NCBI GenBank assembly: GCA_947629245.1 | Contig: CANRDC010000014.1 | Coordinates: forward strand, 1-41,918 | Direction: 5' to 3' | Length of the DNA stretch: 41,918 nucleotides | Origin: an uncultured Oscillospiraceae bacterium | Lineage (GTDB): Bacteria > Bacillota > Clostridia > Oscillospirales > Oscillospiraceae | Shown: one piece after another, positions 5,788-20,303 of the stretch | How positions within the stretch are numbered: position 1 is the first letter of the stretch | Layout of the letters: each line of letters starts with the position of its first letter | The notes under the pieces: generated by a model | Seen by the model: only the letters and a program-made list of their open reading frames with translations | Told to the model about the DNA's origin: nothing | Databases searched by the model: none | Position numbers and translations under genes: made by a program

Positions 5788-5803
5788 AAAGCGCCTCGCA
5801 GAG

Positions 5804-6052
5804 TTTGCGCCCGGAGGCGCAAATAAAGTTGGATATGATTTCCGGGGGCGTGTACCTCGGAAATCATTCTTCTCGGCCTGCAAACGTGCGAGCCCATGGG
5901 GTCCCCACAAAGCCTGTTTTGTGGGGAGAGGAGGGACCGCAAACTATTCGAGTTTTGCCGTTTGCGGCAAAAGGAGACCTAGTTTGCGAGCCCCGACGAG
6001 CGCTGCAGCAGGCCGCAGCCTTTTCGATTGAAAGGCTCTGCCTTTCAATCGA
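5804..6052. repeat. Hairpin train A, between the two permease genes
   Basis: Five successive inverted repeats: 5804-5823 (TTTGCGCC / GGCGCAAA), 5835-5867 (ATGATTTCCG / CGGAAATCAT), 5903-5926 (CCCCACAAA / TTTGTGGGG), 5938-5988 (CGCAAACTA / TAGTTTGCG, enclosing TTTTGCCG / CGGCAAAA), and 6024-6052 (TCGATTGAAAGGC / GCCTTTCAATCGA). The last one contains the stop codon of the upstream permease. No convincing coding frame exists here. The region could reduce or insulate distal operon expression, or be a mosaic of mobile palindromes. Confidence 0.8.
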
Positions 6053-6986
6053 GTCTGATCCTCGGGTCGATATACTGGGTGACGATATCCGCCAGATAGT
6101 TCATGAACACCACGATGAAGGCGATGATCACCACGATGCACTGGACCACGGGATAATCCCGGTTGCCGATGCTGGCCAGCAGGAGCCTTCCCAGGCCGGG
6201 CAGGGCGAACACCTGCTCCACCACGATGGACCCGGCCACGATATCGGCCAGCGTCATAGCCACGAAGGTGACCACGGGCAGGATGGCGTTTCTGAGCACA
6301 TGCATGCGGATGACGCTCCAGCGGGAGTTGCCCCGGCTGTAGGCCGTGCGCACATAGTCCTGGCCCATCTGGCCCATGATGGATGAGCGCAGCAGCTTTG
6401 TGACCATGGCGGCCTTGGGGATGGCGATGGCCAGGGCCGGGAACACCAGGTAGCCCAGAAAGCCCCAGAAGCTGTCCTGAGGCCGCACAAATCCGCCCGG
6501 CACGAACAGCTTCAGCACCAGTCCGAACACATAGGTAAAGAGGATGCCCAGGAAGAACGGGGGAATGGCCATGAACACCTGGTTCATGGCCACGAATACC
6601 CGGTCGAGCCGTCCCCCCTGCCAGCGCGCCAGCGTGATGCCAAGAGGGATGCTGATGGCGATGACCAGCAGCCACGCCATGAGGGACAACGCCGCGGTGA
6701 CGGCGCCCTTGCCCTCCATGACCTGGCGGACGGTCATGCCATAGTTATAGCTGTCGCCCATATCGCCCGTGACGAAACCGGTGAGCCAATCCCAGTACCG
6801 CACGAGCACGTTCCTGTTCAGTCCCATCTCCTCCCGCAGGGCCTCGGCCCGCTCCGGGGTATAGTCGCTGCCCAGGAGCTTGGTGACGGGGTCGCCGGGG
6901 ATGAGCTGGAAGGCCAGGAACGCCAGCAGGGATATGAGGAGCAGGGTGACGGCCAATACTCCTGTTTTTCTCAGTACATACCGCAA
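6045..6986 (-). CDS. ABC transporter permease, OppB/DppB/NikB family
   Basis: 313 residues, matching NikB/DppB (about 314-340). The first membrane helix is at residues 9-30 (GVLAVTLLLISLLAFLAFQL) followed by the family motif PGDPVTKLLG and ALREEMGLNRN. Further helices lie near 100-120, 135-160, 175-200, 235-260 and 280-300. The cytoplasmic coupling loop is MGQDYVRTAYSRGNSRWSVI (the EAA-like region). The start codon follows the binding-protein stop by 3 bases, so the two are cotranslated. It should build the translocation pore with the second permease. Confidence 0.93.
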   Translation of the reverse strand: MRYVLRKTGVLAVTLLLISLLAFLAFQLIPGDPVTKLLGSDYTPERAEALREEMGLNRNVLVRYWDWLTGFVTGDMGDSYNYGMTVRQVMEGKGAVTAALSLMAWLLVIAISIPLGITLARWQGGRLDRVFVAMNQVFMAIPPFFLGILFTYVFGLVLKLFVPGGFVRPQDSFWGFLGYLVFPALAIAIPKAAMVTKLLRSSIMGQMGQDYVRTAYSRGNSRWSVIRMHVLRNAILPVVTFVAMTLADIVAGSIVVEQVFALPGLGRLLLASIGNRDYPVVQCIVVIIAFIVVFMNYLADIVTQYIDPRIRLD

Positions 6987-12443: not shown

Positions 12444-12498
12444 GAAGAGAGACCGTCAAAGAATGGCTGAATGGGGGCGAAGGCCGGTCAGGCCGAGC

Positions 12499-12627
12499 CG
12501 CGCGGCATTCCCGCGCGTGAAGTCAAAAGCCGCTGTGCGACAGGCTTTTGTCTTCCTGCGAGGGGGAATTCACTTTCCCCTCGCAGTTTAAATCGGAGCT
12601 GTCAAAAACTCGTTTTTTGACAAGCTC
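12499..12627. repeat. Hairpin train B, between recJ and relA
   Basis: Four successive inverted repeats in 129 bases: 12499-12517 (CGCGCGG / CCGCGCG), 12524-12550 (CAAAAGC + CTGT / ACAG + GCTTTTG), 12556-12586 (CTGCGAGGGG / CCCCTCGCAG) and 12596-12627 (GAGCT + GTCAAAAA / TTTTTGAC + AGCTC). The spacers are 6, 5 and 9 bases. None has a normal terminator tail, although the last one has a T-run within its 3' arm. The 10-mer GGAGCTGTCA at 12595-12604 recurs in the MITE-like element at 19348-19357. No coding frame is supported here. Confidence 0.8.
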
Positions 12628-12650
12628 AAAGGAAGAGAGACAGACAGAAC

Positions 12651-19289: not shown

Positions 19290-19330
19290 GCAAATCAAAA
19301 TTTATCGCGCCGCAGGCGCACATTATGGAA

Positions 19331-19478
19331 GGCTCCCTTGTGTAAAGGGAGCTGTCAGCGCCAAAGGCGCTGACTGAGGGATTGATTGCTAGAGTTGTAC
19401 GTCTAACGCACCTGGTCTGGTAATCAACCCCTCCGCCTCGCTGTCGCTCGGCACCTCCCCTTACACAGGGGAGGCTTT
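19331..19478. mobile_element. MITE-like inverted repeat element
   Basis: The left half (19331-19387) and the reverse complement of the right half (about 19421-19478) are diverged copies of one sequence: GGCTCCCTTGTGTAAAGGGA against GCCTCCCCTGTGTAAGGGGA, and both end in TTGATT. Inside are four small hairpins (for example GTCAGCGCC / GGCGCTGAC at 19354-19374). No open frame crosses it. This class of short non-coding palindrome, starting GGCTCCCTT and continuing GGGAGCTGTCA, is recurrent in gut clostridial genomes as far as I recall. A transposase would have to act in trans. Confidence 0.65.
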
Positions 19479-19504
19479 TGGTCTGGTAGTGACTTTTTAC
19501 GGCG

Positions 19505-19520
19505 CCCTTTACACAAAGGG
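19505..19520 (-). terminator. Short hairpin downstream of the first Xre gene
   Basis: CCCTTT-ACAC-AAAGGG, five bases past the end of the small regulator gene. It resembles the termini of the neighbouring MITE-like element, so it may be a remnant of that rather than a dedicated terminator. Confidence 0.4.
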
Positions 19521-19524
19521 GGTT

Positions 19525-19731
19525 TTATTTGTCCCAGTCGATGACAAAAAGGTCGTTGGGCGTACAATCCAAAAGCTGACAAAGGGTCTCGATGCGCTCC
19601 ATTTTGATGGAGCCGGTCTCGTTATTGACCATACGACTGAAGTTCTGATAGCTCATCCCCAGCTGCTTATAAAGCCAATACTTCGTCTTTCCCCTCTTCT
19701 CCAAAAGCGCCAGCACATTCAGTCTGACCAT
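19525..19731 (-). CDS. Small Xre/Cro-type helix-turn-helix regulator
   Basis: 68 residues from the ATG at 19731 (a GTG at 19743 is possible). It consists of a single Cro/CI HTH: MVRLNVLALLEKRGKTKYWL, then YKQLGMSYQNFSRMVNNETG as the HTH core, and IKMERIETLCQLLDCTPNDLF, the typical last helix. No effector domain. It lies 36 bases downstream of a second Xre gene on the same strand. Toxin-antitoxin modules often carry such proteins, but no toxin gene is seen on either side. Targets unknown. Confidence 0.8.
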   Translation of the reverse strand: MVRLNVLALLEKRGKTKYWLYKQLGMSYQNFSRMVNNETGSIKMERIETLCQLLDCTPNDLFVIDWDK

Positions 19732-19767: not shown

Positions 19768-20010
19768 TTACCGTATTTCCTGTTCCAGCTCGTCGAACAC
19801 CGGCGCGGAGAAAAACGCGCCCAGGGTGACGCCCAGACCGTCGCACAGCTTCTTGACGGTGGTAACGGATATATCCCTGCGGACCGGGTCCATCATACTG
19901 TACACCGTAGACGGCGTCACACCGGACAGCGTCGCCAGCTCGTTGTACTTTATGCCCCGCTCCCGGCAGAGCTCCGCGAACCGCGCCGCCACCGCATCCT
20001 TGACCATCAT
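19768..20010 (-). CDS. Small Xre/Cro-type helix-turn-helix regulator
   Basis: 80 residues from the ATG at 20010 (ATG-ATG start, GAGGTG upstream). HTH core: AVAARFAELCRERGIKYNEL, then LATLSGVTPSTVYSMMDP, ending with VTTVKKLCDGLGVTLGAFFS, a pattern seen in many single-domain clostridial Xre proteins. The C-terminus FDELEQEIR is acidic. A longer reading frame upstream runs through hairpin train C and is not credible. The gene sits between train C and the other small regulator; the pair may be co-transcribed. Confidence 0.8.
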   Translation of the reverse strand: MMVKDAVAARFAELCRERGIKYNELATLSGVTPSTVYSMMDPVRRDISVTTVKKLCDGLGVTLGAFFSAPVFDELEQEIR

Positions 20011-20025
20011 ACTATCACCTCTACA

Positions 20026-20203
20026 GCGATAATGATCATCGCAAGGTGAAAACAAATGTTTTCGCCGCCAAACGACACGTTTGGCAGCAAATGATCCAAG
20101 GATCATTTGCGCGATGCTCATTGCAATGAATATCTGGCAAAACAGCCTCGCTGTTTTGCTGAGCCGCAAAGCGGCTCGGCGCAACGCCTTGCGGCGTTTC
20201 GCC
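20026..20203. repeat. Hairpin train C, upstream of the Xre pair
   Basis: Consecutive inverted repeats: 20026-20042 (GCGAT / ATCGC), 20048-20063 (GAAAAC / GTTTTC), 20067-20085 (GCCAAACG / CGTTTGGC), 20087-20110 (GCAAATGATCC / GGATCATTTGC), 20118-20129 (TCATTGCAATGA), 20137-20159 (GCAAAACAGC / GCTGTTTTGC), 20161-20177 (GAGCCGC / GCGGCTC) and 20178-20203 (GGCG + AACGCC / GGCGTT + CGCC). Spacers are 0-7 bases. It fills most of the 338-base gap between xre and the CoA-transferase gene. A TATAAT on the minus strand at 20220-20215 could make the train an RNA leader, but its -35 is poor. Confidence 0.85.
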
Positions 20204-20303
20204 ATCAGATAATCATTATAGTAGCGTTTTGTTCGCACAAGCGTATACGCACTTGCGTATATCCCGCCGCGGACGAGGCCGAAGCCGAATGAACCCACGC
20301 GAA

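What the first reader, a model, noticed from the sequence alone, without database searches (positions are those of the whole stretch)
20026..20203. Third hairpin train: about eight perfect stems in 178 bases with almost no spacer
Nearly every base belongs to a perfect inverted repeat, each of different sequence, and one hairpin starts 0-7 bases after the last. Together with the loci at 5804 and 12499 this makes three non-coding loci of shared architecture but different sequence in 42 kb. Possible explanations are an array grown by repeated insertion of palindromes, an RNA element recognised by shape rather than sequence, or a by-product of a replication or transposition process. I know of no named family that fits. 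It precedes two small Xre genes that lack obvious partners.
Basis: partly seen in the sequence, partly recalled or inferred. Interest (0 to 1): 0.7.

Follow-up and report, generated by a model that had tools for sequence, protein, structure and literature searches.

The report
Mobile double-cloverleaf DNA repeat, AT-inserting
The train of hairpins is one copy of a small mobile DNA element of a gut bacterium, made of two related cloverleaf-folding halves, that inserts at the letters AT and whose moving enzyme is not known.

Summary
The hairpin train is real. It is one copy (window 20029-20219) of a ~190-bp dispersed repeat. The window's genome holds 16 near-full copies and 4 partial loci. Of 60 genomes searched, own included, 21 match, all among the 35 of its genus. 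Six hairpins and two closing stems fold as two back-to-back cloverleaves. Over 55 copies covariation favours these pairs and not pairing of the element's ends. The halves are paralogous, best aligned head to head (61 of 87 bases), and solo halves occur. Empty sites at eight insertions, six of them clear-cut and the window's own included, show entry at an AT dinucleotide in a symmetric YNATNR context. No partner was found: Y1, IS30-type, IS630-type and IS110-type transposases do not track the copies. Best reading: a non-autonomous, MITE-like element moved in trans by an unidentified enzyme that uses short inverted ends, perhaps on folded DNA. The Xre neighbour looks incidental.

The parts
20029..20219 (+). 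complete double-cloverleaf element including the AT at each end (AT-[AATGAT...ATCATT]-AT)
   Evidence: 55 of 55 aligned copies begin and end with AT; empty sites
20031..20122 (+). left cloverleaf module AATGA...TCATT: closing stem plus three hairpins
   Evidence: fold; solo left module in L124
20123..20124 (.). 2-bp spacer (GC here) between the modules, inside TCATTGCAATGA
   Evidence: 51 of 55 copies fitted the search expression; spacer GC 39, GT 10, AC 2
20125..20217 (+). right cloverleaf module AATGA...TCATT, paralogue of the left
   Evidence: 61 of 87 aligned bases identical to the left after reverse-complementing, 0 of 2000 pair-keeping shuffles as high; 60 of 82 without reversing, 1 of 2000; solo right modules in L131, L227
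20045..20066 (+). hairpin 1
20067..20085 (+). hairpin 2
20087..20110 (+). hairpin 3
20137..20159 (+). hairpin 4
20161..20177 (+). hairpin 5
20178..20203 (+). hairpin 6
20029..20030 (.). AT at the left junction (target or its duplicate)
   Evidence: empty site reads AGC-G-AT-A-GTA in G009, G030, G026, G029, G025
20218..20219 (.). AT at the right junction (target or its duplicate)
19768..20010 (-). neighbouring small Xre-type HTH gene, start about 17 bp from the element by a home-made codon model; not part of it. The same frame is open through the element to 20337, so the start is not certain
   Evidence: Pfam HTH_26/HTH_31; gene call; ORF list

Best explanation
A non-autonomous mobile element, MITE-like in organisation. 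Shown: a dispersed repeat of one genus, flanked by AT where relatives have a single undisturbed AT; two paralogous modules, each folding as a cloverleaf; solo modules with the same AATGA...TCATT ends. Inferred: a recombinase acting in trans recognises the short inverted ends, possibly together with the folded cloverleaf as extruded or single-stranded DNA, and joins them to a 2-bp AT step of a symmetric target, either duplicating AT or inserting between A and T. Stem conservation then reflects selection on copies that can still move. Effects on neighbouring genes, such as a structured 5' leader, are secondary.
For: 16 near-full copies and 4 partial loci in the own genome; 21 of 60 genomes, all in the genus. 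Single AT in empty sites at eight insertions, six clear-cut. AT at both ends in 55 of 55; Y at -2 in 46 of 55, R at +2 in 53 of 55. Cloverleaf pairs: 98.2% of cells paired against 31-47% when slid; 19 cells with two-sided changes against 4.0 in shuffles, 0 of 500 as high; end-to-end pairing exceeds its shuffles on no measure. Paired columns vary less than unpaired ones, 0.023 against 0.177. G-U and A-C single-step changes are equally frequent (28 and 29), as expected if DNA, not one RNA strand, is constrained. Two species carry the element at one site in opposite orientation (L044, L050).
Against: No enzyme identified, and no longer element with these ends seen in 6 genomes searched with the end pattern (not every hit was fetched). 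Sliding partners by -2 also gives 9 two-sided pairs, though 12 cells and a covariation score of 0.021 against 19 and 0.048; related copies can exceed shuffles without structure. By cells G-U exceeds A-C (74 against 42). The middle spacer is GC, GT or AC, not AT, which a simple dimer of AT-flanked modules does not predict. One of three empty sites of L020 lacks AT, L044 has an extra 9-bp tandem repeat, L052 aligns with gaps, and the L018 site lies in another repeat.
Confidence: 0.8

Rival explanations
1. A functional RNA element: the cloverleaves are transcribed in the 5' leader of the downstream gene and control its expression or stability, dispersal being secondary.
For: Only 1 of 53 copies with both neighbours called lies in a convergent gap; the right-hand gene reads away from the element in 42 of 54. 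RNA fold z -11.7. G-U cells outnumber A-C cells, 74 to 42.
Against: G-U and A-C events equal, 28 and 29. Orientation in tandem gene pairs 23 to 11, p 0.058; convergent depletion p 0.005 by number of gaps but 0.37 by length. Relatives lack the element at the same place. No Rfam match, no tRNA.
Confidence: 0.1
2. A REPIN: a pair of REP-like units moved by a Y1 (RAYT) transposase.
For: Pair of related structured units; Y1 genes in 12 of 35 genus genomes.
Against: G002 (97% complete, 6 copies among its 11 match rows), G013 (13 copies) and G032 (8 copies) show no Y1 gene, though G013 and G032 are only 77% and 73% complete. The target is a symmetric AT step, not the short asymmetric motif recalled for this family. 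Flanks of the Y1 genes were not searched for modules.
Confidence: 0.05
3. Moved by a serine recombinase (2-bp crossover at AT), the G013 locus being the autonomous form.
For: In L136 a resolvase-family gene lies between a double element and a small module; a 2-bp core suits serine recombinases (recalled).
Against: Of 30 loci with relatives of that gene only the G013 locus itself carries the repeat (the 30 are the loci returned, not every match). Several homologues have inverted GTGTAC-type motifs downstream, as DNA invertases do (by eye). The own genome has only a 35% identical relative.
Confidence: 0.05

Closest known systems
Bacterial MITEs: ERIC/IRU, Correia/NEMIS, RUP (review PMC2229807, passages read)
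   Same: About 100-200 bp, terminal inverted repeats, highly base-paired, scattered copies.
   Different: Those three are tabulated with 5'-TA-3' termini, and the review describes a stem formed by pairing of the two ends; here the target is AT and covariation supports pairing of each end with the middle.
CIR repeats of Caulobacter and Brucella (same review, passages read)
   Same: Two independent structured arms rather than one end-to-end stem.
   Different: CIR arms are long inverted repeats joined by a linker, with a GANTC motif and no terminal inverted repeat listed; here each arm is a four-way cloverleaf with inverted ends.
BOX elements of Streptococcus (PMC3049150, passages read)
   Same: Modular, structured, mobile; modules vary in number.
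   Different: BOX has boxA and boxC ends around tandem boxB units; here two paralogous modules, each also found alone.
ATon elements of the mosquito Aedes aegypti (PMC3422177, passages read)
   Same: Non-autonomous, terminal inverted repeats, insertion specifically at AT, duplication or insertion between A and T undecided, autonomous partner unknown.
   Different: Eukaryotic; no cloverleaf modules in the passages read; no sequence comparison made.
REPINs moved by RAYT transposases (recalled)
   Same: Pair of structured palindromic units.
   Different: Unit is a ~92-nt cloverleaf; no link to Y1 genes; symmetric AT target.

Membership tests
MITE (general kind) | short, multi-copy and dispersed | tested here: met
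MITE (general kind) | terminal inverted repeats | tested here: met
   AATGATYATC ends; 90.3% of end-to-end cells pair over 12 column pairs
MITE (general kind) | target-site duplication | tested here: inconclusive
   AT at both ends, single AT in empty sites: a 2-bp duplication and insertion between A and T look the same; a search for 2-9 bp duplications over shifted boundaries passed nowhere at z 3
MITE (general kind) | related autonomous transposon with the same ends | tested here: not met
   end-pattern listing of 6 genomes and 20 fetched loci; 1.28 Mb of held sequence; most of the genus was not searched this way
IS630/Tc1-mariner derived MITE (as RUP) | TA target and IS630-type transposase in the genome | tested here: not met
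   AT target; DDE_3 in 0 of 35 genus genomes, controls ring in 3 of 14
REPIN/RAYT | cognate Y1 transposase in carrying genomes | tested here: not met
   no match in G002, G013, G032, which carry copies
IS30-derived | IS30-type (HTH_38) transposase in carrying genomes | tested here: not met
   no match in G002, only below-cut-off matches in G010 and G013
IS110-derived | IS110-type (Transposase_20) gene in carrying genomes | tested here: not met
   no match in G002, G010, G013, G032
Rfam RNA family | score above gathering threshold | tested here: not met
   0 matches in the window; weak matches all below threshold

The most novel reading that the evidence does not exclude
A class of bacterial element that joins paired cloverleaf modules to insertion at AT, moved by a recombinase outside the four transposase families tested that reads DNA shape (a four-way junction) plus a 5-bp end. 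The other hairpin-train families of these genomes could be further substrates of such enzymes.
Probability: 0.25. Interest if true: 0.75.

Novelty: new variant of a known kind. Interest (0 to 1): 0.5.

Why it matters
It explains a striking hairpin train as a mobile element and gives exact ends, target and natural empty sites, which makes the moving enzyme searchable. A double-cloverleaf unit with solo halves is a natural system for asking whether a recombinase recognises folded DNA. The AT target with inverted ends parallels the unexplained mosquito ATon elements.

Tried and rejected
Target duplications of 2-9 bp at shifted boundaries were tested by permutation over 55 copies; no offset passed z 3. 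The invariant AT is invisible to that test and became clear only from empty sites.

Autonomous partner: Y1 (12 of 35 genomes), HTH_38 (27 of 35 with any match, 14 above cut-off), DDE_3 (0 of 35) and Transposase_20 (12 of 35) do not follow the copies. The serine recombinase beside the G013 copy was pursued and dropped. An inverted-end search of 1.28 Mb of held sequence gave 19 pairs; the top one lies in two known copies and the rest do not show these ends. Other DDE families (IS3, IS5, IS256, IS66 and others) were not tested.

Phage and plasmid collections gave no match by blastn, viral contigs none to one exact 29-base pattern. Rfam and tRNA: none. Gene-context bias is weak; gene calls come from a home-made codon model, not an annotation.

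Dropped rows: of 60 loci compared with the element 5 were left out of the 55-copy alignment (L030, L032, L033, L034, L035); L030 is near full length but was cut by the filter. In one search at most 13 candidates per genome were scored, and match rows include short cross-matches inside copies (G002: 6 copies among 11 rows). For empty sites 14 of 55 copies were used and only the 30 loci returned were aligned; L037, L039, L048, L049 and L051 gave no junction-spanning site there, L019 agrees on one side only, L044 is irregular. For the window's site G032 and G006 matched one flank only or with a gap. Of the further end-pattern hits, 20 stretches were fetched; at least four (G013 C33 and C39, G002 C6 and C15) were not.

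Full report
What is there. The stretch 20028-20220 folds into eight stems: six hairpins and two closing stems. The closing stems join 20028-20042 to 20111-20124 and 20125-20136 to 20206-20217, so the train is two cloverleaves, each with three arms, back to back. (The outermost pair of the first, at 20028, was left out of the covariation count.) The fold is far more stable than shuffles as RNA (z -11.7) or DNA (z -11.2), and the reverse strand folds likewise.

It is a repeat. The own genome (3.08 Mb, 87% complete) has 16 near-full copies including this one, and 4 partial loci. Of 60 genomes searched, own included, 21 match at E 0.001 or better; all 21 are among the 35 of the genus, none among the 25 outside it. 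A scan of genome contigs for one exact 29-base pattern gave 33 stretches, all in MAGs titled 'Lapin' (rabbit gut, my inference), 32 titled Oscillospiraceae and 1 Rikenella. Viral contigs had no match to the same pattern; phages and plasmids none by blastn.

Anatomy. 55 full copies were aligned. All 55 start and end with AT. Within four genomes (15, 4, 8 and 6 copies compared) mean identity is 0.92-0.95, the closest pair 0.984. The cloverleaf pairs are kept in 98.2% of cells (97.6% in shuffles, 31-47% when slid). Nine pairs and 19 cells show two-sided changes, against 2.7 and 4.0 in shuffles, 0 of 500 as high; sliding by -2 also gives 9 pairs but 12 cells and a lower covariation score, 0.021 against 0.048. 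The clearest single case is a C-G to A-U change in 9 copies in the right closing stem. Pairing left end with right end exceeds its shuffles on no measure. Paired columns have mean minor-base frequency 0.023, unpaired 0.177. The left module (92 nt) and the reverse complement of the right (93 nt) share 61 of 87 aligned bases (score 69, 0 of 2000 pair-keeping shuffles as high); without reversing 60 of 82 (score 57, 1 of 2000). The modules are therefore paralogous; head-to-head orientation fits better, but since each module is itself nearly palindromic the orientation is not certain. Both fold with the same topology. Solo modules with ends AATGA...TCATT occur, for example L124, L131 and L227, as do shortened ones (read by eye).

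Target. Joined flanks of 14 copies were searched in 35 genomes, and the 30 loci returned were aligned. A single AT stands where the filled site has AT at both ends at L020, L027, L038, L043 and L050, and with less certainty at L018 (the site lies in another repeat) and L052 (gapped alignment); one of three empty sites of L020 lacks AT. The window's own site is empty in five species and reads G-AT-A in all five. That is eight sites, six clear-cut. The flanks are symmetric: Y at -2 in 46 of 55, R at +2 in 53 of 55, A at -1 in only 5 of 55. Such symmetry suggests an enzyme that treats both sides alike. L044 and L050 sit at one site in two species in opposite orientation (flanks 89-93% identical); the own genome is empty there (L148).

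Mechanism. The evidence fits a non-autonomous element moved in trans. Ends, target and presence/absence between species are shown; the enzyme, its use of the folded form and the duplication of AT are inferred. Equal G-U and A-C events (28 and 29) favour constraint on DNA over one RNA strand; cell counts (74 and 42) are less even. Tested enzymes do not track: G002, 97% complete with 6 copies, shows none of the four families. The one case of a recombinase gene between two copies (L136) is not repeated in the other 29 loci checked.

Context. The element lies about 17 bp from the start of a small Xre gene by my gene call, whose frame stays open through the element. Gene-context bias is weak: tandem orientation 23 to 11 (p 0.058), one convergent of 53 (p 0.005 by gap number, 0.37 by length). 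Five relatives keep the Xre promoter region without the element.

Comparison. In passages read, ERIC, Correia and RUP have TA termini and end-to-end stems, while CIR repeats have two arms (PMC2229807); BOX (PMC3049150) is modular but built differently; mosquito ATons (PMC3422177) share inverted ends and AT insertion and also lack a known partner. Listings for a bacterial cloverleaf or AT-inserting MITE, or MITEs of this bacterial group, showed none that I recognised by title and abstract start; this covers only the top rows and the held open-access library.

Stretches 5795-6060, 12480-12635 and 19309-19530 each match many places in the genus; none is a copy of this element in the own-genome search. 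The joint query matched 43 of 60 genomes and 10 of 26 genera, but the listing was cut and does not show which stretch matches outside the genus.

Noticed in passing
window 5795-6060: Second hairpin-train family: long matches in several genus genomes and many matches to only its first ~95-100 bases, so it may be modular too.
   Followed up: partly
window 12480-12635: Third hairpin-train family, ~150 bp, many copies across the genus.
   Followed up: partly
window 19309-19530: Long imperfect palindrome (GGCTCCCTTGTGTAAAGGGAGC...), a further repeat family beside this element, with many copies in the genus.
   Followed up: partly
L044 and L050: One insertion site in two species holds the element in opposite orientations: independent insertion or inversion in place.
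   Followed up: partly
L143, L144, L155: Copy L018 is inserted in another repeated sequence, present more than once in these relatives' loci.
   Followed up: no
L173-L185: Mpi-like serine recombinases; several have inverted GTGTAC-containing motifs downstream, suggesting DNA-inversion switches.
   Followed up: partly
L120 1062-1989: A Y1-transposase locus with a 928-bp segment whose ends match 17 of 18 inverted after AT, in a genome without the element.
   Followed up: no
L084: A copy on a contig titled Rikenella in a 'Lapin' MAG, perhaps a binning error.
   Followed up: no
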